Shown: piece after piece, positions 400 through 23,285 of the stretch
How the letters are laid out: each line of letters begins with the position of its first letter
Numbering within the stretch: the first letter of the stretch is position 1
Virus record (IMG/VR): IMGVR_UViG_3300036828_000838
Span: 1 to 23,380 of that record
Reading direction: 5' to 3' (one strand)
Source of the DNA: a virus
DNA length: 23,380 nucleotides
Position numbers and translations under genes: made by a program
Notes under the pieces: model-generated
Told to the model about the DNA's origin: nothing
Seen by the model: the letters and a program-made list of their open reading frames with translations, nothing else
The model's database searches: none

Positions 400-624
400 T
401 TAGCGCGATATGCAGATTTGGATATTATTTAAATCAAGCAGCACCGATCGCCCATTAAAGCAGACGTTACTGACTGGCGCGGGATCGCGCTCTCGCGTAA
501 GCTCGGAAACGACGCGGTGCGTCGCCTCAGCTCGCATCCGAAAGGCCGCTGCGATAACTTTCATCGGAGCGACCATTAACAGTTCGCCTTCCTGCGAGTA
601 GACGTTATAGAATTGCGTGGTCAT
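400..624 (-). CDS. 74-aa hypothetical protein (promoter cassette 1)
   Basis: The start at 624 (MTTQFYNVYSQEGELLMVAP) is chosen because GAGGAG lies 8 nt upstream. The longer ORF reading into 625-708 would translate the promoter. The protein looks like a small alpha/beta domain with no recognised family. Codons at 510-540 are a near-copy (30 of 31 nt) of the sequence directly 3' of a dispersed hairpin element at 17509, so this gene is the candidate target of a guide-like sequence (see findings). It is driven by its own promoter at 652-680. Confidence 0.65.
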   Translation of the reverse strand: MTTQFYNVYSQEGELLMVAPMKVIAAAFRMRAEATHRVVSELTRERDPAPVSNVCFNGRSVLLDLNNIQICISR

Positions 625-3628: not shown

Positions 3629-3655
3629 CTCTCGCTGTTGTCCCGGCGAGCCGGG
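3629..3655 (-). repeat. Dispersed hairpin element, single copy
   Basis: A full copy in - sense: hairpin CCCGGCUCGCCGGG, linker ACAACA, tail GCGAGAG. It sits 30 nt upstream of the 265-aa gene start, in the gap 3600-3718, which holds nothing else recognised. Confidence 0.9.
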
Positions 3656-4249: not shown

Positions 4250-4663
4250 TTACTTTGGCTGAAATAGCAGCAAATCCTTGACTTTATCCCAATCCCAACA
4301 CGCCGGTCCGCCGTCCCAAGATCCAATCGCTAGAGCCCCAAGGACCTCTCCAATTATCAATTCACGCGCCGCTGCGCCACGCAGAAGATACAGTGTATCC
4401 GACTGCGCTGTGGTATGGCGCACCGCGATAAATACTCTACCGCCATGCCGTAGCCTTTGCTCGATCCAGCCGACTTGTTCTGGGCTAAAGGTTACGCGAG
4501 CGCGCTTCTTGCCCTTTGCGAATTTGTTCTCAATCCAAACCTCAATACCATTGAAACAGCCGTTAATATCTGGGACGCCTGATCCGGTTATGAAGGTCTC
4601 TATCGCTTGCCAATGAAACTCCGGCAGGTGCTTCTTGAAGAGTTGCCTTAAACCACCGTCCAT
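4250..4663 (-). CDS. PD-(D/E)XK nuclease, VRR-NUC/Holliday-resolvase-like
   Basis: 137 aa. The nuclease core is visible. GSGVPDINGCFNGIEVWIEN contains the PD at about residues 31-32 and E-N-K at about 44-46 (the D...E-x-K catalytic set). It is followed by FSPEQVGWIEQRL, the family's 'S.eQ..wi..l' helix, and GGRVFIAVRH as the last core strand. Proteins of this type cut structured or modified DNA and occur beside phage replication genes. This one sits just downstream of dnaE. A stem-loop at 4674-4694 precedes the start. The exact substrate cannot be told. Confidence 0.75.
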   Translation of the reverse strand: MDGGLRQLFKKHLPEFHWQAIETFITGSGVPDINGCFNGIEVWIENKFAKGKKRARVTFSPEQVGWIEQRLRHGGRVFIAVRHTTAQSDTLYLLRGAAARELIIGEVLGALAIGSWDGGPACWDWDKVKDLLLFQPK

Positions 4664-4720: not shown

Positions 4721-4743
4721 CCCGGCTCGCCGGACAGCGAGAG
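4721..4743 (+). repeat. Dispersed hairpin element, inverted relative to its neighbours
   Basis: CCCGGCTCGCCGG, a 2-nt linker, then AGCGAGAG on the + strand, whereas both flanking genes are on the - strand. It is the only copy opposed to local transcription. The linker is shortened and the outer stem pair is lost (C/A). It lies in the 90-nt gap after dnaE. Confidence 0.8.
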
Positions 4744-12204: not shown

Positions 12205-12530
12205 CTCTCGCTTTTGTCCCGGCGAGCCGGGTAGTTTCATCTCACCTCTCGCTTTTGTCCCGGCGAGCCGGGTAGTTTCATCTTTTGACCTAGCGCTTGC
12301 CTACGCGATCCTCTCGCTGTTGTCCCGGCGAGCCGGGTAGTTTCATCTCACTCACGCTTTACGCACCAGCTCTCTCGGCCCTCTCTCGCTGTTGTCCCGG
12401 CGAGCCGGGTAGTTTCATCTTCGTGCCGGCCCTGGCTCTCGCTTTTGTCCCGGCGAGCCGGGTAGTTTCATCGTGTGCCGCGAGCTCCCTCGTTTCTCTC
12501 GCTGTTGTCCCGGCGAGCCGGGTAGTTTCA
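12205..12530 (-). repeat. Near-tandem array of six 35-37-nt hairpin elements
   Basis: Copies start (as + strand CTCTCGC) at 12205, 12246, 12311, 12383, 12436 and 12496. Each except the last is 37 nt: the core hairpin, linker and tail plus the 5' extension GATGAAACTA. Intervening sequences are 4, 28, 35, 16 and 23 nt, all different. The array sits between the 65-aa and 141-aa genes and is read in their direction. It resembles a CRISPR or ToxI repeat array in look, but spacing is irregular. The rest of 12143-12539 holds no gene. Confidence 0.92.
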
Positions 12531-12539
12531 AAGCTCAGG

Positions 12540-12737
12540 TTAGCCCATCATCTCCTTTACTTCAAGAAACTCGATTTGATCTCTCAGTCGCGACGCTTCA
12601 ACATGATGCAGCCACACCTGATCCTTTGCGCAGCGCTGATTTAGAGCCCGCACTTGAGATACTCTTACCCTGCTCCAGCCGATGAAGCGCCAGTGAACTT
12701 CATAGCTGATTGGGCCCTGATCAGATAATGCTTTCAT
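12540..12737 (-). CDS. 65-aa basic hypothetical protein
   Basis: Reads MKALSDQGPISYEVHWRFIG ... LRDQIEFLEVKEMMG. Basic in the middle and amphipathic at the C-terminus, plausible as a small nucleic-acid-binding protein. GGGGACGA is a modest ribosome binding site. It ends 10 nt before the six-copy array. No family recognised. Confidence 0.5.
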   Translation of the reverse strand: MKALSDQGPISYEVHWRFIGWSRVRVSQVRALNQRCAKDQVWLHHVEASRLRDQIEFLEVKEMMG

Positions 12738-12764: not shown

Positions 12765-12842
12765 CTCGGCGAGCCGGGAAATGCGGCTGGCCCTCATCAT
12801 CTGGATGGGGCGCTGCTCTCGCTGTTGTCCCGGCGAGCCGGG
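12765..12842 (-). repeat. Half element (12765-12778) and full element (12816-12842)
   Basis: The full copy is consensus. The half copy keeps only the hairpin (one stem mismatch) and lacks linker and tail. Both lie in the leader of the 65-aa gene, after the stop of the 87-aa gene. Confidence 0.85.
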
Positions 12843-12845
12843 TAA

Positions 12846-13109
12846 TTAGGTGGTCTCCTCTCCACCAACAATCCTGGCCTCCAACAGTATCAGCCTTCCA
12901 GCAGCCAAACGTTGCGTTAAGCGTTGCCGCGCTGCGCCCTGCAACACTCGCCCCGCGCCCAGCATTACATTGCAATTTTTTGCTTCGGCCGCGCCAGTCG
13001 TTATAGCGTCGAAAGCGGCCTCAGCCATCTCGACTGATCGATTGAGCAAATCCATCTCACTCTTGATCGTGGGATGGATCAATGCGACTTGGCTCTTGGA
13101 TATTGTCAT
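12846..13109 (-). CDS. 87-aa helical hypothetical protein
   Basis: MTISKSQVALIHPTIKSEMD then LLNRSVEMAEAAFDAI and an Ala/Arg-rich C-terminus. Its ATG overlaps the TGA of the TnpB/Cas12-like gene (ATGA), and its GGGAGAGG ribosome binding site lies within that gene's last codons, right behind a hairpin element. Expression is therefore linked to the TnpB-like gene, so it is a candidate partner. Function unknown. Confidence 0.6.
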   Translation of the reverse strand: MTISKSQVALIHPTIKSEMDLLNRSVEMAEAAFDAITTGAAEAKNCNVMLGAGRVLQGAARQRLTQRLAAGRLILLEARIVGGEETT

Positions 13110-14470
13110 TTCGCCTCTCCCTTTCCTCTCGCTGCTGTCCCGGCGAGTCGGGTTTTGCGTGCGGTATTGCGCAGCTTGCGGCCTGTGTCAACTAATACAG
13201 AGCCGATTGCGATAGCTGGTGCTGTCTCCTCAACGATGTCGCACCGAATGCCTGCCTCCTCTGCCTTGTAGGTCAACATCGCAACAGCAGCAGCAGGCGC
13301 CATGGATAAAACATTACGGTTGAGCTCCGATACTGTGTCCGTAGCCGCTCCCCATTGCTTTTCGTCACCGTGCGGAGAGACAACGTGATCGCTGACCCTT
13401 GGCGTTATTATGGTCAGATCCTTGGCGCGGCTGACGAGCCTAGTGCTCCACACGTGGAGGGCGTCGCGCCGGATCCGCGCGCTACGCGCCGATAGGCTGC
13501 TGATCTCTTGGTTGGCCTCAACCCAATCTGGATCGCGCGGGCTGCGGCGTGGCCAGCGTTGGTCGCGCTCTGATTTGAGTTCATCAATTATCTCAGTCAA
13601 ATCGTGAGCACGCAACAGACCCTCTGGTGTTTCCGGTTCACCTGATACGCGCGCGAGACAATCTAGACCGTCAAACTCTACTGTGATCTTCCCGGTGCCG
13701 GGCTCTCTGCGCGGTGGCATCTCTACACAAATCGAGAACCACCACTTGTTGTTGCGCCAAAGAACGTCTGCGTTTTTGCAAATAACATTATCAAGCGGAA
13801 ACCGTCCGCGTGCGTGGATTGATCCGTTCACTCCCTTGAGCGTTAATCGCCAATTCTGCGTTCGCTTGCGTTCGGAAACCGGCTCCAACCGACAGCCGCT
13901 GCCGCTGCTACTCTTTTTGACGCCTTTAGTCGCTGTTGGATTGTGTACGTGGGGTATGCGTCGGCCGTCCTCGCTGCGCTGGTAGCGCGGATAGCCTGCG
14001 CGTGCTCCGGCGCCAGCCCGCGCGCGGCGATAGAAAGCGCTAAAGGCCTCATCCATCGATTTGGCAATACGATGAGGCGACCAAACCGAGAGCGCAGCCC
14101 ACTCCGGACACTCATGCCGTAGCTGGGTAACCTCGCTGGTCATGTCAAAGAATGAATAGCTCGCCTTGTCCTCGCTGTGGAGGACGCCGCGTTGACCCTT
14201 AGTGCGCCGCCAAATGTCCTCGTGGCGTTGCAAAAATGCGTTCCACAACTGCGCCATCATGCGGCGTTGGGTATGCAGCTGGCATTTTTGTTCTTCAGTC
14301 GGGTAAATTTGAAATATGTACCGGCGGAAGACAGTGATGTTGCGGCTGCCGGCGCCTGGCTCCGCTCGGACTCTCTCGCTGTTGTCCAGGCGAGCCTGGT
14401 TGTGTTCCGGCCAACATGGCGTTCTCTCGCTGTTGTCCCGGCGAGCCGGGTTATCGTTGTTATCTAGCAT
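13106..14470 (-). CDS. TnpB/Cas12-like protein with degraded RuvC motifs
   Basis: 454 aa. Two translated hairpin elements occupy residues about 5-34 (NPARRDNSER; NQARLDNSER). The TnpB-type wedge/REC part follows. RRYIFQIYPTEEQ (49-61) is the family's 'K.rlYPT.eQ' start, SPHRIAKSMDEAFSAFYRRA (131-150) and GYPRYQRSEDGRR continue it, and ADVLWRNNKWWFSICVEM (234-251) is the last strand before RuvC. RuvC-I may survive (FDGLDCLARVSG, Asp267). RuvC-II reads DLTIITPRVS where 'vvEdL' is expected, so the Glu is missing. YKAEEAGI (401-408) marks the approach to RuvC-III, but the CxxC zinc ribbon is absent and only VDTGRKLRNTAR stands in the D-x-N-A-A region. Nuclease activity is therefore doubtful. This is like TldR or Cas12m proteins, which bind DNA by RNA guide without cutting. 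No TnpA is nearby. Confidence 0.8.
   Translation of the reverse strand: MLDNNDNPARRDNSERTPCWPEHNQARLDNSERVRAEPGAGSRNITVFRRYIFQIYPTEEQKCQLHTQRRMMAQLWNAFLQRHEDIWRRTKGQRGVLHSEDKASYSFFDMTSEVTQLRHECPEWAALSVWSPHRIAKSMDEAFSAFYRRARAGAGARAGYPRYQRSEDGRRIPHVHNPTATKGVKKSSSGSGCRLEPVSERKRTQNWRLTLKGVNGSIHARGRFPLDNVICKNADVLWRNNKWWFSICVEMPPRREPGTGKITVEFDGLDCLARVSGEPETPEGLLRAHDLTEIIDELKSERDQRWPRRSPRDPDWVEANQEISSLSARSARIRRDALHVWSTRLVSRAKDLTIITPRVSDHVVSPHGDEKQWGAATDTVSELNRNVLSMAPAAAVAMLTYKAEEAGIRCDIVEETAPAIAIGSVLVDTGRKLRNTARKTRLAGTAARGKGEAK
13126..13152 (-). repeat. Hairpin element forming the C-terminus of the TnpB/Cas12-like gene
   Basis: A copy with one loop-proximal stem change (CCCGA opposite CCGGG) and linker ACAGCA. 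It is translated as TRLAGTAARG, six residues before the stop. In TnpB systems the omega-RNA begins in the 3' end of tnpB, so this placement matches where a guide scaffold would be expected. Confidence 0.85.
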
Positions 14471-14856
14471 TAACGTACCTATGCCAACCGTGAGCTGCTC
14501 TCTCGCTGTTGTCCCGGCGAGCCGGGTTGGTGGTTGCTGCCCCAGGCATGACCCGAGCGGCGGCCCCCTCTCGCTGAACCTTCTCTCGCTGTTGTCCCGG
14601 CGAGCCGGGTTAGATCCTTTCGCGCTAATTCCCGAACCTCTCGCTGTTGTCCCGGCGAGCCGGGTGTCGTCCGCTCGCGCTCACACTCTCGCTGTTGTCC
14701 CGGCGAGCCGGATTGTTGGTTTGCTCCATGATGTTGTGGAACGATGAGCGCCACCTCTCGCTGTTGTCCCGGCGAGCCGGGTTAATCGTTGCTGAGATCG
14801 GCCAGTGCGCGCGCGGGACCACCTTCCTCTCGCTGTTGTCGTCCCGGCGAGCCGGG
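14373..14856 (-). repeat. Array of eight hairpin elements plus one tail fragment, upstream of and into the TnpB/Cas12-like gene
   Basis: Full copies start (+ coordinates) at 14373, 14424, 14500, 14583, 14638, 14686, 14755 and 14827, with a tail-only fragment at 14568. The first two lie inside the coding region. The others fill the gene-free stretch 14471-14870, which would be the leader. Gaps are 21-56 nt and unlike each other. The copy at 14373 has a compensated stem (CCAGG with CCTGG). The 14827 copy carries a GAC insertion in the linker. Frames open across the array only translate the repeat and are not genes. Confidence 0.92.
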
Positions 14857-15799: not shown

Positions 15800-16711
15800 T
15801 TACATCGGATTGTCAGCGTCAGCGTGGTCTTCAACAGTAGGCGGAGTTTCAGCCGCCTGAACGCCGCTCAGGAAGGCCTCGTGCAAGGTCTTCCCGCGAA
15901 TGAACTCAATTTTACTCGCGCGCCGCTCAAACTTGATCTCCCACATATGCCAGGTTCCCATCTGGTTTGTGCGTGGGCGGGTACGCATCCGGTAGATGCC
16001 GTCCCAGCTGGGGACGCTTTTACCGGAGGCGGTTAGCCTCTGGTTCATGACCATCATCCAGGTGCGCGAGGTAGTGTGGCCAGTCCCGCTCATTGGGATA
16101 ACGTACGGCAGCGCCATACCGTTGTTCAGCGCGTAGCCAATGTGGTTGCGGTTCATAATGACTTCATTGCCGTTGGGTCGGGTATATTTGATCTTGTTTG
16201 GATTGCGCGGGTCTTTGCTAACGATAATGTCCGCGATAGGGCACTGCTCCGCTTTGGCTAAGTTCGGATGGCGCGCGACAAAACCGCCTCCGCGCTCGCG
16301 TGGGATCCACTCCAGCCAGCTGATCTCAAAATAGCAAGGCTGGAACAAGAGACCATCGTCACTCTTAATAAGCGGATTAGGCGCGTTGCGTAGCCAGATA
16401 TCGCCCGCCTTGGCTCCATCTAGATAACTCTGATTGCTATCGTCAACCTGCGGCGAGCCCTTCTGCAGAATGTAAATCAGCGGAACGAGATTATCCGCGG
16501 CCGACTTGCTCAGGCCCTGGTCGGCATACTTTTCCAGCTCCTCCATATCCACTGGCTGGTCGTCAGCCGCTCTCGCTGTTGTCTCGGCGAGCCGAGTTTC
16601 GTCATTGGCGAGCATTAACTCTTGCTGGTTTTCTTCTCTCTCGCTGTTATCCCGGCGAGCCGGGTTATCATTGCTGTTTTCTTTAGTGAGTTGTTCTTTG
16701 GCTTTGGCCAT
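15800..16711 (-). CDS. 303-aa conserved phage protein with two translated hairpin elements
   Basis: Excellent ribosome binding site (AAAGGAG, 6 nt from ATG). The N-terminal tail (1-60) is low complexity and contains the element twice: NPARRDNSER in one frame and TRLAETTARA in another. The folded part begins about residue 65 (ADNLVPLIYILQKGSPQVDD) and continues with EISWLEWIPRERGGGFVARH, RNHIGYALNNGMALPYVIPM and GTWHMWEIKFERR. This layout resembles phage proteins encoded beside replication genes, often thought to bind single-stranded DNA. That function is a guess from context. The insertions sit only in the disordered tail. Confidence 0.75.
   Translation of the reverse strand: MAKAKEQLTKENSNDNPARRDNSEREENQQELMLANDETRLAETTARAADDQPVDMEELEKYADQGLSKSAADNLVPLIYILQKGSPQVDDSNQSYLDGAKAGDIWLRNAPNPLIKSDDGLLFQPCYFEISWLEWIPRERGGGFVARHPNLAKAEQCPIADIIVSKDPRNPNKIKYTRPNGNEVIMNRNHIGYALNNGMALPYVIPMSGTGHTTSRTWMMVMNQRLTASGKSVPSWDGIYRMRTRPRTNQMGTWHMWEIKFERRASKIEFIRGKTLHEAFLSGVQAAETPPTVEDHADADNPM
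16570..16664 (-). repeat. Two in-frame hairpin elements in the 303-aa gene
   Basis: Copies at 16570-16596 and 16638-16664. The first has a fully compensated stem (CTCGG/CCGAG), keeping the hairpin while changing codons. The second has linker ATAACA. They are translated in two different frames. Confidence 0.9.
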
Positions 16712-16944: not shown

Positions 16945-16968
16945 GCGGTTCCGTGGCCAGGCCTTGTA
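16945..16968 (-). repeat. 24-nt guide-like copy of 17064-17087 directly 3' of an element
   Basis: In RNA sense it starts TACAAGGCCTGGCC. It matches 17064-17087 at 23 of 24 positions, and its first base abuts the tail of the element at 16969. The match ends exactly at the element boundary. Confidence 0.8.
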
Positions 16969-16995
16969 CTCTCGCTATTGCCTCGGCGAGCCGAG
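16969..16995 (-). repeat. Hairpin element with compensated stem
   Basis: The stem is CTCGG/CCGAG, the loop is unchanged, the linker is GCAATA, and the tail GCGAGAG. It overlaps the 3' end of the 72-aa ORF (translated ILGSPRQ-stop) and lies in the leader of the 86-aa gene. Confidence 0.9.
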
Positions 16996-17193
16996 TATTG
17001 GTCTTGGACGTGGCAAAGGTATCAACTCTGTTGAACTCAACTCACACTTGAACTGGCTGCCAGGCGGTTCCGCGGCCAGGCCTTGTAAGACACAGGCCCG
17101 CTCGGAGCGATAGCGTCCAGCGCTGCGCCAGACGCAATCGCCGTCATAATTGTTACAGATGTGGAGCACCAGGAGATATTCAATCATCATCAT
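16975..17193 (-). CDS. Small cysteine-containing hypothetical protein
   Basis: 72 aa, MMMIEYLLVLHICNNYDGDC ... GRYRSERACVLQGL ... FKCELSS. The four Cys in a C..C-W, AC, C pattern resemble small phage proteins of unknown function. The C-terminal end runs into a hairpin element and stops inside its linker. The ribosome binding site is weak. The segment coding for VLQGLAAEP is the near-identical partner of 16945-16968. Confidence 0.5.
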   Translation of the reverse strand: MMMIEYLLVLHICNNYDGDCVWRSAGRYRSERACVLQGLAAEPPGSQFKCELSSTELIPLPRPRPILGSPRQ

Positions 17194-17219: not shown

Positions 17220-17535
17220 CTCTCGCTGTTGTCCCGGCGTTGCTCGCTGGACAAGGCCTCTCGCTTTTGTCCCAGCCGGGTATTTATTTGATGGCTTGCT
17301 AGGTTTCATGGCCAATGCTAATACTCGCTGTGTCCAGCGAGCAAGGGTGGGAGCCAAACCTGGCCTTGTAGTGCCTTGAACACTTGCCCGTTGCCATCGC
17401 GGTTGCAGGAGAGAATATCCCACCCTTTGCTTGTTGTCACACAATTTTGTAGTTCATAGTTTTATATCAAGGGTGCTCGACGCGGTGCGTCGCCTCAGCT
17501 CGCATTCGCTCTCGCTTTTGCCACGGCGAGCCGGG
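17220..17535 (-). repeat. Degenerate hairpin elements in a gene-poor stretch
   Basis: The stretch 17194-17575 has no convincing gene. It holds a copy broken in its hairpin (17220-17239), one that lost its loop (17258-17280), and one with a stem mismatch (17509-17535). An inverted repeat of TTGCTCGCTGGACA lies at 17241-17254, with its complement at 17327-17340. Positions 17433-17461 and 17538-17564 are near-identical direct repeats (GTTGTCACRCAATT...). They bracket the third element and the 31-nt sequence attached to it. Confidence 0.75.
17478..17508 (-). repeat. 31-nt guide-like copy of 510-540 directly 3' of an element
   Basis: It matches 510-540 at 30 of 31 positions, including an uninterrupted 28 nt, and abuts the tail of the element at 17509 with no gap. 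In RNA sense it begins CGAATGCGAGCTGAGGCG and is sense to the small gene at 400-624, 17 kb away. Confidence 0.9.
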
Positions 17536-17575: not shown

Positions 17576-18151
17576 TCAATCCTTACGTGGCTTGAGCTCA
17601 GCGATGCGCCCCACGCGCGCGCCGATAGTTTCAAGGTCTGGTATCTCTCCGCCATTTGCGAATTGCTCTCTTAGCCAAGCGGTCAGCGTTTGGTGGTGGA
17701 CGGTCTCGGCCACTTCAGGATCGATCTGATACTGTAATCGCAGAAAGTCTACAATGGCGGTGGCCAGCTCGTGCTCGCCGCGCGCCAAATTGATACGCAA
17801 TTGGGTCTTGATCAAATCGCCATTGCCAGAGGCTTCCAGCGCTGCGAATGCCGCTGCGCGCTTTTCAGGCGGCCAATTGGCCGCGATGTTAGCGTAGATA
17901 TAAGGCTCCAGGATAAGATCATAAGCCGGCATATTGTCCTTGGCCGGAAGGCCTATGCGGTCCATGCCGATGTTATCCATCATGTTTGGTAGCGTCTCAA
18001 ATTGAAGCTCACGCATCTGTCTCTTTGCTAGTTCCAGCCGTTCTTCAAGCTCTTTGATCGTTATATCTAAATCGCGTAGCTCTGCAGCCGTCTGGCGTAG
18101 CAAATCGACGCGTTCGCGCGCTACTGTTTGGATTGTATCGCTCTCGTCCAT
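17576..18151 (-). CDS. Phage helical protein (Gam-like layout), function unknown
   Basis: 191 aa from ATG at 18151. The N-terminal coiled coil (about 10-55, LRDLDITIKELEERLELAKR) is followed by LPNMMDNIGMDRIGL and an alpha/beta body. It then has VHHQTLTAWLREQF, matching the 'VHp.TL.afvRE.l..G..iP' segment of a family encoded beside ssDNA-binding proteins in many tailed phages. The tail AGCGAGAG of the element at 18158 lies 7 nt before the ATG and is the only Shine-Dalgarno-like sequence available, so the element may set this gene's translation. First gene of the left arm. Confidence 0.75.
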   Translation of the reverse strand: MDESDTIQTVARERVDLLRQTAAELRDLDITIKELEERLELAKRQMRELQFETLPNMMDNIGMDRIGLPAKDNMPAYDLILEPYIYANIAANWPPEKRAAAFAALEASGNGDLIKTQLRINLARGEHELATAIVDFLRLQYQIDPEVAETVHHQTLTAWLREQFANGGEIPDLETIGARVGRIAELKPRKD

Positions 18152-18157
18152 CAATTT

Positions 18158-18327
18158 CTCTCGCTATTGTCCCGGCGAGCCGAGTATTATCTCACGTGCG
18201 GCGTGCGCTCACACTCGCGCACACGGCTAGAGCTAGCCTCTCGCTATTGTCCCGGCGAGCCGGGTATCACTCTCATCAGACAACAAAAAGCTATATCCAG
18301 CTCTCGCTATTGTCCCGGCGAGCCGGG
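18158..18327 (-). repeat. Three hairpin elements in the leader of the left arm
   Basis: Copies at 18158-18184, 18238-18264 and 18301-18327, all with linker ACAATA. The first has a C-U-C-G-G stem kept by a G.U pair. Intervening sequences are 53 and 36 nt and unrelated. A leftward transcript would carry all three ahead of its first gene. Confidence 0.92.
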
Positions 18328-21496: not shown

Positions 21497-21838
21497 AATG
21501 AAGAGGTTAAAGAGGGTCAATAGGTTACGGTAAAGCTACGCGTACGAGGAAGCATTCTCAATAGTAGTAGAGTTTTTTAACCCTATTATTCCTATTTGAC
21601 CTATTTTTGGAGCTATGGACTTTCATATTTTACTGATGTTTTTTTCAATAGGGTGATGAATAGGTTCTTTCGCCCCGTTTTTGGCTGTGGAGCAAATTCG
21701 CCCGTTTTTTTTTGCTTGAGGCGAATTTGGAGTGAATTCGCCCCGTTTTTTGGCTGAGCAAATTCGCCACGTTTTTTGGCTGGGGGAGCGATTAAAGGTG
21801 TTTACTTTGGACTGGTTTTGGAGCGATAACATCATAAC
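21497..21838 (+). other. Intergenic region with short repeats, possible origin/terminator zone
   Basis: No gene is seen. It holds GGGTCAATAGG near 21516 and CCTATTTGACCTATT near 21590 (inverted iteron-like words), plus AATAGGGTGATGAATAGG near 21649. Four spaced copies of a TTCGCC-x-CG-T(n)-GGCTG-like unit follow between 21669 and 21782. The position behind the primase and helicase genes would suit a replication origin, but the repeats could simply be stacked terminators. Confidence 0.45.
21720..21751 (+). terminator. Rho-independent terminator
   Basis: GGCGAATT, a 7-nt loop, AATTCGCC (8-bp perfect stem), then CCG and six T. It reads rightward behind the helicase gene. The half-site AATTCGCC...CGTTTTTT recurs at 21765-21778. 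Confidence 0.7.
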
Positions 21839-22403: not shown

Positions 22404-22486
22404 CTCGGCTCGCCGAGACAATAAAAAGCGAGAGGCGACTCGGAGGCAGGTCATGATAACTTGGCTCGCCAAGTATAAAGCGAGAG
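22404..22486 (+). repeat. Two hairpin elements between NusG-like gene and next ORF
   Basis: 22404-22434 has stem CTCGG/CCGAG and a longer linker (ACAATAAAA). 22459-22486 has stem ACTTGG/CCAAGT, a further compensated variant, with linker ATA. Both end in AGCGAGAG. They occupy the gene-free stretch 22313-22511, which shows nothing else. Confidence 0.9.
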
Positions 22487-22775: not shown

Positions 22776-23119
22776 TGGTTGTACGTTCCAAGCAACCTCC
22801 AAGTGAGTGGTATGGGCTACGGTCCTGGAAGCATAGAGTGGAGCACCATTTGCGCATGGAGCCTTTCTGCCGCTTCTGCGCTAGGCGCAAACAGTATGTA
22901 GCAGCTGAGATAGCAGACCATATTGTTCCGCACAAAGGCAATTGGGATGCCTTCAGGATTGGTGAGCTACAGTCTTTGTGTATACACTGCCACAATAGCG
23001 ACAAGAAGTTTGAAGAGCACCGTGGCTTCTTGAAAGGCATTGGCTTGGACGGTATGCCGATAGACCTTAACCATCCAGTGTATGGTGGATACTTGTGTTA
23101 TCCGGCTCGCCGGATTTAA
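22775..23119 (+). CDS. HNH endonuclease
   Basis: 114 aa. A zinc pair FCRFC (32, 35), then ADHIVPH (Asp48, His49, His53) and LCIHCHNSDKK (Cys69, Cys72, His73, Asn74) form a complete HNH/zinc-ribbon nuclease core. The start at 22775 fits the TGATG overlap. An upstream frame from 22718 lies inside the previous gene. In HK97-like phages such HNH proteins are encoded next to the terminase genes and help cos cleavage, and the gene's position at the end of the window fits that. The last residues (CYPARRI) and the stop are supplied by a hairpin element. Confidence 0.88.
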   Translation: MVVRSKQPPSEWYGLRSWKHRVEHHLRMEPFCRFCARRKQYVAAEIADHIVPHKGNWDAFRIGELQSLCIHCHNSDKKFEEHRGFLKGIGLDGMPIDLNHPVYGGYLCYPARRI

Positions 23120-23172
23120 GCGAGAGAAGCGCGAGAGAAGCGAGAGGCAGCCATCCACCATACATTGGATGG
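23071..23172 (+). other. Long-range 20-bp RNA stem around the end of the HNH gene
   Basis: 23071-23090 (CCATCCAGTGTATGGTGGAT) and 23153-23172 are inverted copies, 19 of 20 identical. The single difference gives a G.U pair, so the transcript could pair over all 20 bp. The loop holds the hairpin element and several tail copies. Confidence 0.75.
23100..23146 (+). repeat. Hairpin element with extra tails at the HNH gene end
   Basis: The stem is ATCCGG/CCGGAT, the linker TTA carries the HNH stop codon, and the tail is AGCGAGAG. Two further tail-like units (AGCGCGAGAG, AAGCGAGAG) follow immediately, and more GCGAGAGAG-type words lie near 23182-23205. Confidence 0.85.
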
Positions 23173-23244: not shown

Positions 23245-23285
23245 GTAAAAAAATATTATTCTCTTTCTTTTTCTGGTTTTATCGA
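23245..23285 (+). promoter_or_regulatory. Candidate rightward promoter
   Basis: An A-tract (AGTAAAAAAATATTATT) precedes CTCTTTCTTTTTCTGGTTTTATC, the same UP tract plus T/C-rich spacer layout as the left-end promoters. TTTATC is a poor -10. It would drive genes beyond the window edge. Weak evidence. Confidence 0.35.

What the first reader, a model, noticed from the sequence alone, without database searches (positions are those of the whole stretch)
13106..14470. Phage TnpB/Cas12-like protein with lost RuvC residues at the centre of the element arrays
About 16 of the roughly 31 copies lie within 12.2-14.9 kb, around and inside this gene. The protein keeps the TnpB N-terminal and WED-like motifs, but the RuvC-II Glu and the zinc ribbon appear absent. 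Known relatives with dead RuvC domains (TldR, Cas12m) bind DNA by guide RNA and repress transcription. A hairpin directly followed by a variable sequence is also the layout of Cas12a crRNA, and an element lies at the 3' end of the gene where TnpB omega-RNA starts. I propose an RNA-guided, non-cutting phage regulator that uses many dispersed guides.
Basis: partly seen in the sequence, partly recalled or inferred. Interest (0 to 1): 0.88.

Follow-up and report, generated by a model that had tools for sequence, protein, structure and literature searches.

The report
Non-cutting phage CRISPR with scattered repeats
This phage gene appears to encode a miniature CRISPR protein that has lost its cutting site, and the hairpins scattered around it are its CRISPR repeats; in related phages they form ordinary CRISPR arrays, so phages seem to use it to silence rather than cut DNA.

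Summary
The gene at 13106-14470 (-) encodes a TnpB/Cas12-fold protein (ISDra2 TnpB, Z 17.5) without the RuvC-II Glu, zinc ribbon and RuvC-III Asp. Exactly 16 hairpin elements lie at 12.2-14.9 kb. Five other phage contigs in IMG/VR encode the same protein family. In three of them the element is the repeat of a regular CRISPR array (36-nt repeat, mostly 36-41-nt spacers) near the gene. So the elements are crRNA handles: a 5-bp hairpin whose loop pairs with the downstream tail, with compensatory changes in both helices. The protein is under purifying selection (dN/dS 0.15 and 0.08) although predicted dead. In one relative, 3 of 7 spacers match the antisense strand of a capsid gene, which points to silencing of related phages. 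In the window the handles are also dispersed, some inserted in frame in genes. Several orthologous handles keep their 5' flank but carry unrelated guides, and two window guides (31 and 24 nt) copy the phage's own genes. Own-genome targeting is not above background overall. I read this as a phage-borne, nuclease-dead, compact type V CRISPR, with silencing inferred. It is a new variant of a known kind.

The parts
13106..14470 (-). Compact TnpB/Cas12-like effector gene, predicted nuclease-dead (conserved core about residues 43-440)
12205..12541 (-). Array-like run of 6 repeats (full repeat about 37 nt, GATGAAACTACCCGGCTCGCCGGGACAACAGCGAGAG or close) with irregular spacers of 5-36 nt
12816..12842 (-). 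Single handle
13126..13152 (-). Handle overlapping the 3' end of the effector gene (the place of the omega-RNA in TnpB)
14373..14856 (-). 8 handles in the 5' part and upstream leader of the effector gene, mostly without the 5' half of the repeat
16969..16995 (-). Solitary handle; conserved in relative G003 with its 5' flank but with a different guide
16945..16968 (-). 24-nt guide-like segment after the handle at 16969, 1 mismatch to 17064-17087
17064..17087 (-). Putative protospacer of the 16969 guide, in a small upstream gene (5' flank TCT)
17509..17535 (-). Solitary handle; the whole unit is absent from relative G003
17478..17508 (-). 31-nt guide-like segment after the handle at 17509, 1 mismatch to 510-540
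510..540 (-). Putative protospacer of the 17509 guide, inside a small gene (5' flank TTT)
16570..16664 (-). Two handles inserted in frame near the start of a Pam3_Gp34-like gene; the orthologous gene in G003 lacks them
18158..18327 (-). Three handles in the divergent intergenic region upstream of 17576-18154
3629..3655 (-). Solitary handle 30 nt upstream of a start codon
4140..4166 (-). Solitary handle 59 nt upstream of a start codon
21994..22020 (+). Handle inside the NusG-like gene, in frame
22404..22486 (+). Two handles with covarying stems (CTCGG/CCGAG, CTTGG/CCAAG)
23101..23128 (+). Weaker handle at the end of the HNH-like ORF

Best explanation
A phage-borne, minimal, nuclease-dead type V CRISPR system. 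Shown by sequence: a TnpB/Cas12-fold effector without the catalytic Glu, RuvC-III Asp and zinc ribbon, maintained by selection; cognate repeats whose conserved 27 nt form a hairpin plus loop-tail pseudoknot; variable sequence straight after it; regular arrays in relatives; no Cas1 found. Inferred: the repeat RNA is trimmed to handle plus guide, the effector binds it as a crRNA-only RNP, and the RNP sits on matching DNA and blocks transcription without cutting, as Cas12m and TldR do. The likeliest targets are genes of related phages (capsid in one relative). In the window's lineage the repeat units have spread from the array to many places in the genome, so crRNA-like units can come from many transcripts; some of these may also act on the phage's own genes.
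For: Fold: ISDra2 TnpB Z 17.5 over 306 residues, Cas12f about 14, Cas12m2 about 12-13 (model pLDDT only 63). Catalytic loss in the family. Relatives with regular arrays: 36-nt repeats, spacers 36-41 nt in G006, mostly 36-39 in G007 and G008. Pairing: 97.0% of pair cells standard against 89.5% in shuffles, 35 cells changed on both sides against 7 (0/500 shuffles); loop changes CTCG->CCCG and CTCG->CTGG are matched by tail changes CGAG->CGGG and CGAG->CCAG. dN/dS 0.15 and 0.08. Six orthologous handle pairs with conserved 5' flank and replaced guide. 3 of 7 G006 spacers match the antisense strand of its MCP-like gene at score >=15 (0.4% of shuffled spacers reach this), two at the same codons. No Cas1 and no Y1 TnpA in 15 contigs.
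Against: The window itself has no regular array; its spacers vary from 5 to 47 nt. No exact protospacer was found in GenBank phages or plasmids for the G006-G008 spacers, nor for the two guides scanned in IMG/VR. Own-genome guide matches are not above background. No expression, binding or repression data. PAM undetermined. The structure model is of middling confidence and rests on 5 sequences.
Confidence: 0.72

Rival explanations
1. The dispersed handles are mobile palindromic elements (REP/PATE/MITE-like relics of an IS200/IS605 element); the TnpB-like protein is a domesticated remnant and the 3' sequences are not guides.
For: Handles insert in frame into genes, with empty sites in a relative; a 75-nt unit with a handle sits inside the G009 effector gene; the nearest cellular relatives are IS605 TnpBs with tnpA next door; an element overlaps the gene's 3' end as omega-RNA does.
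Against: Regular arrays with near-constant spacer length in three relatives; pseudoknot covariation fits RNA better than a DNA transposon end; no Y1 transposase in 15 contigs; guides are replaced while handle and 5' flank stay.
Confidence: 0.15
2. Self-regulation at RNA level: the effector binds handles in phage mRNAs (leaders, coding starts, its own leader) and controls their processing or translation; guides matter little.
For: Handles lie in the leader of the effector gene in window, G003, G007, G008 and G009; several solitary handles lie 4-60 nt upstream of start codons; in many copies only the 27-nt handle is conserved, not the 5' half of the repeat.
Against: Long regular arrays with unrelated spacers in relatives; capsid-matching spacers; handles in G001 and G005 lie antisense to the surrounding ORFs.
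Confidence: 0.25
3. RNA anti-CRISPR (Racr): repeat mimics that block a type V system of the host.
For: Solitary repeats in phages can be Racrs, also for type V-A (PMC10651486). Several contigs carry handles without a detected effector.
Against: A cognate effector is encoded by the same phages; the 50 single hits to the pattern in 84,980 bacterial and archaeal genomes are about the number expected by chance and never form arrays, so no host system with this repeat is seen.
Confidence: 0.06
4. An active nuclease with a rearranged RuvC site.
For: D267 is invariant in all aligned members.
Against: No Glu/Asp at the RuvC-II position in any member and no RuvC-III Asp.
Confidence: 0.06

Closest known systems
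[quoted passage not shown]
   Same: Phage-borne, TnpB-like effector beside an array with 36-nt repeats, no other Cas genes, suggested regulatory role
   Different: NCBIfam c2c8 model matches only 2 of 5 members, best E 0.004, far below its cut-off; here the RuvC-II Glu, RuvC-III Asp and zinc ribbon are lost and repeats are dispersed in genes
Cas12m / type V-M (PMC10442227, PMC11013384)
   Same: Inactive RuvC, crRNA-only, binds DNA to silence transcription
   Different: Cas12m2 is 596 aa with a REC2 insertion and an HCCC zinc finger; this family is about 380-480 aa without zinc finger
TldR, nuclease-dead TnpB repressors of prophages (PMC13418256)
   Same: TnpB-derived, RuvC-dead, phage-borne, RNA-guided silencing
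   Different: TldR is described there with a guide RNA downstream of the gene and host flagellin targets; here short crRNA-like handles in arrays and dispersed copies
V-U variants of huge phages (PMC7162821) and compact type V of landfill phages (PMC12607003)
   Same: Small phage effectors without Cas1/Cas2, short arrays; spacers against structural genes of other phages; some without RuvC motifs
   Different: Relationship of those proteins to this family not tested; dispersed in-gene repeats are not mentioned in the passages I read
Solitary repeat units / Racrs (PMC10651486)
   Same: Single CRISPR repeats scattered in phage genomes
   Different: Those mimic host repeats and lie away from cas genes; here the phage carries the effector too

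Membership tests
Type V CRISPR-Cas (broad) | Single TnpB/Cas12-fold effector | tested here: met
   HMM hits; Z 17.5 to ISDra2 TnpB, about 14 to Cas12f
Type V CRISPR-Cas (broad) | Regular repeat-spacer array near the effector gene | tested here: met
   Met in G006, G007, G008; in the window itself the array is irregular
Type V CRISPR-Cas (broad) | crRNA made from the repeats and bound by the effector | not testable with these tools
   Needs RNA-seq/RIP-seq; structure conservation only
Type V CRISPR-Cas (broad) | Spacers match mobile elements | tested here: inconclusive
   3 of 7 G006 spacers resemble the antisense of an MCP gene; no exact protospacers
IS200/IS605 TnpB | RuvC D-E-D triad and zinc ribbon | tested here: not met
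   Glu replaced, RuvC-III Asp and zinc ribbon missing
IS200/IS605 TnpB | Y1 TnpA or transposon ends nearby | tested here: inconclusive
   No Y1_Tnp in 15 contigs, which are mostly fragments; ends not searched
Type V-U2 / c2c8 | Score above the curated c2c8 model cut-off | tested here: not met
   Best E 0.004; P0001 11 bits against a cut-off of 350
Cas12m (V-M) | About 600 aa, REC2 insertion, HCCC zinc finger | tested here: not met
   382-481 aa, zinc ribbon absent; no Cas12m entry among the PADLOC hits
TldR | RuvC-dead TnpB | tested here: met
TldR | Long omega-RNA-like scaffold at the gene's 3' end with a single guide | tested here: inconclusive
   A 27-nt handle overlaps or abuts the 3' end in window, G002, G003 and G009, but most guides lie in arrays and elsewhere
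Racr solitary repeat unit | Matches a CRISPR repeat of the host, no cas gene in the phage | tested here: not met
   The phage encodes the effector; no host array with this repeat was seen

The most novel reading that the evidence does not exclude
A 'distributed CRISPR': a nuclease-dead phage effector whose crRNA handles have spread as single units into leaders and coding sequences, including in frame in essential genes and in the effector gene itself, so that ordinary phage mRNAs yield guides with which the phage tunes its own and its relatives' transcription.
Probability: 0.25. Interest if true: 0.86.

Novelty: new variant of a known kind. Interest (0 to 1): 0.72.

Why it matters
It would be an independent TnpB-to-CRISPR transition that has lost cutting, in ordinary-sized phages, with the crRNA handle visibly spreading out of the array into genes. 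It gives a small crRNA-only DNA-binding candidate and lets one test whether phages use CRISPR as a gene-silencing weapon against relatives or as self-regulation.

Tried and rejected
Rfam at gathering threshold: no family. Self-targeting as a general rule: an offset profile shows no clear excess at the handle end (9 of 120 guides with <=3/20 mismatches, against about 4-6 per 70-110 at other offsets), because element-rich regions are full of local duplications; only the 31-nt and 24-nt matches and a few weak ones stand out. Spacer hits in GenBank phages and plasmids: none. Translated spacers against own genomes: scores overlap shuffles except for the G006 capsid cluster. Close relatives of the G006 capsid gene in IMG/VR: only itself. 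Exact scans of one window guide and one G006 spacer in IMG/VR: nothing new. Effector protein in GenBank phages: P0001 no match; the L028 protein finds only distant TnpB. phmmer against PDB with the single sequence: no match. Handles always in sense with genes: true in the window, not in all contigs. Genome contigs pattern hits: 50, all single, about the number expected by chance, not followed up.

Full report
What is there. The gene at 13106-14470 (-) encodes 454 aa. Profile searches agree on TnpB/Cas12: NCBIfam guided_TnpB 2.6e-25, slightly below its cut-off; the Pfam helix-turn-helix of OrfB_IS605; PHROG transposase; PADLOC Cas12f and Cas12u4. A predicted structure (mean pLDDT 63) aligns best with ISDra2 TnpB (Z 17.5, 306 residues), then Cas12f, the TranC protein LaTranC, Cas12k and Cas12m. 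Aligned with three IS200/IS605 TnpBs, the RuvC-II Glu is replaced by T, A or S in all five family members, and the proteins stop before the zinc ribbon and RuvC-III Asp would come. An invariant Asp, D267, probably is the RuvC-I Asp. So a non-cutting protein is predicted. It is not decaying: dN/dS is 0.15 between window and G003 and 0.08 between G008 and G009.

The elements. The consensus read in gene sense is CCCGG-CTCG-CCGGG-ACAAC-AGCGAGAG. The window holds 29 good copies, 16 of them at 12.2-14.9 kb. The five-base stem and a pseudoknot between the loop (CTCG) and the tail (CGAG) both show paired changes: CTCGG/CCGAG, CTTGG/CCAAG, CCAGG/CCTGG, TCCGG/CCGGA, CCGGG/CCCGG in the stem, CCCG/CGGG and CTGG/CCAG in the pseudoknot. 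Over 60 distinct copies 97.0% of pair cells are standard and 35 cells change on both sides, against 89.5% and 7 in shuffles; sliding the partners by one to three columns destroys this. Related sequences can exceed shuffles without structure, but the slid controls and the loop/tail swaps in separate phages make chance unlikely.

Relatives. A pattern scan of IMG/VR found the element in further contigs, and protein scans found the effector family in five other contigs besides the window, plus a fragment in G002. In G006 (3300032144_000043), G007 (3300010361_000015) and G008 (3300045110_000283) the element is the 3' 27 nt of a 36-nt repeat in a regular CRISPR array near the effector gene, with spacers of 36-41 nt in G006 and mostly 36-39 nt in G007 and G008. 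This settles the nature of the hairpin: it is the handle part of a CRISPR repeat, and the variable sequence after it is the spacer side. The layout (hairpin plus pseudoknot at the 3' end of the repeat, straight before the spacer) is that of crRNA-only type V systems; this last point is general knowledge, not tested here. No Cas1 and no Y1 transposase are found in the 15 contigs, most of which are fragments.

What differs in the window's lineage. The window, G002 and G003 hold handles in irregular runs and as single copies. Alignment of window and G003 shows four things. (a) The handle at 16969-16995 and its 5' flank are the same in both, but the next ~24-40 nt are unrelated. (b) The same holds for five more orthologous handle pairs among window, G002 and G003. 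(c) Two handles (16570, 16638) sit in frame in a Pam3_Gp34-like gene whose G003 ortholog lacks them, and there the 3' sequence is simply the gene's own. (d) The whole unit at 17509 is absent from G003. In G009 a 75-nt, in-frame piece holding a handle lies inside the effector gene. So handles have spread, and where they stand alone the following segment can be exchanged.

Targets. The guide after 17509 copies 31 nt of a small gene at 510-540 with one mismatch (5' flank TTT). The guide after 16969 copies 24 nt of 17064-17087 with one mismatch (5' flank TCT). But a profile of matches at many offsets around handles shows no clear excess at the handle end, so own-genome targeting is not established as a rule. 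In G006, three of seven spacers match the antisense strand of its own major-capsid-like gene at about 75-86% identity over the aligned part, two of them at the same codons (KSGT). Of shuffled spacers 0.4% reach that score. These spacers probably come from a diverged homologous capsid gene of another phage. Spacers against core structural genes of other phages are known from huge phages (PMC7162821).

How it most likely works. Inferred: array and solitary transcripts are trimmed to handle plus guide; the effector binds the handle between its WED and RuvC domains as TnpB and Cas12m do; the complex finds matching DNA next to a short, possibly T-rich, 5' motif and blocks transcription without cutting, as shown for Cas12m (PMC10442227, PMC11013384) and TldR (PMC13418256). 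The likeliest use is against related phages. Clusters of handles in the leader of the effector gene in five of six lineages suggest, in addition, autoregulation through the effector binding its own mRNA; this is untested.

Comparison with known systems. The nearest described arrangement I found is the putative V-U2 locus of cyanophage CL131 (PMC6293099), also a TnpB-like gene beside 36-nt repeats. The present family does not reach the c2c8 model cut-off, lacks the zinc ribbon and two catalytic residues, and disperses its repeats in genes. It works like Cas12m or TldR as far as can be inferred, but fails the size and zinc-finger features of Cas12m and the single-guide layout of TldR. I therefore call it a new variant of a known kind: phage-borne compact type V, nuclease-dead.

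Limits. All evidence is from sequence. Contigs are metagenomic, partly fragments, and several of the element-bearing contigs come from one sampling project. The structure model is of middling confidence. No exact protospacer was found, so the PAM and the true targets are open.

Noticed in passing
L099 13159-13185 (G009:C1:63158-63184): A 75-nt in-frame unit with a handle is inserted in the RuvC-I region of the G009 effector gene.
   Followed up: partly
L101 8395-8710 (G010:C1:34394-34710): A 95.6-kb phage contig has a short effector remnant (about 31 aa matched) about 200 nt upstream of a single handle; looks like a decayed locus.
   Followed up: no
L021, L025, L026, L102-L105 (G001, G004, G005, G011-G014): Other phage contigs with 1-7 handles but no effector found; they are fragments or may use the effector of a co-infecting phage.
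   Followed up: no
L026 15886-15911 (G005) and L105 4784 (G014): The guide after a G005 handle matches another contig of the same sample over 25 nt with 1 mismatch, a possible inter-phage target.
   Followed up: partly
L024 10364 (G003:C1:24863): One handle runs antisense to its genes; its guide matches the start-codon region of the adjacent gene (18/20 against the window's ortholog at 4647).
   Followed up: partly
652-716, 1209-1273, 1514-1578: Three copies of a ~65-nt AT-rich repeat upstream of small genes, with a partial inverted copy at 23248; possibly a phage promoter or terminator repeat.
   Followed up: no
725-790 and 921-986: Exact 66-nt direct duplication.
   Followed up: no
21690-21781: Three short tandem-like copies of GAGCAAATTCGCC(C/A)CGTTTTTT.
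   Followed up: no
4721-4743: Degenerate handle on the + strand, antisense to its surroundings, orthologous to the antisense handle in G003.
   Followed up: partly
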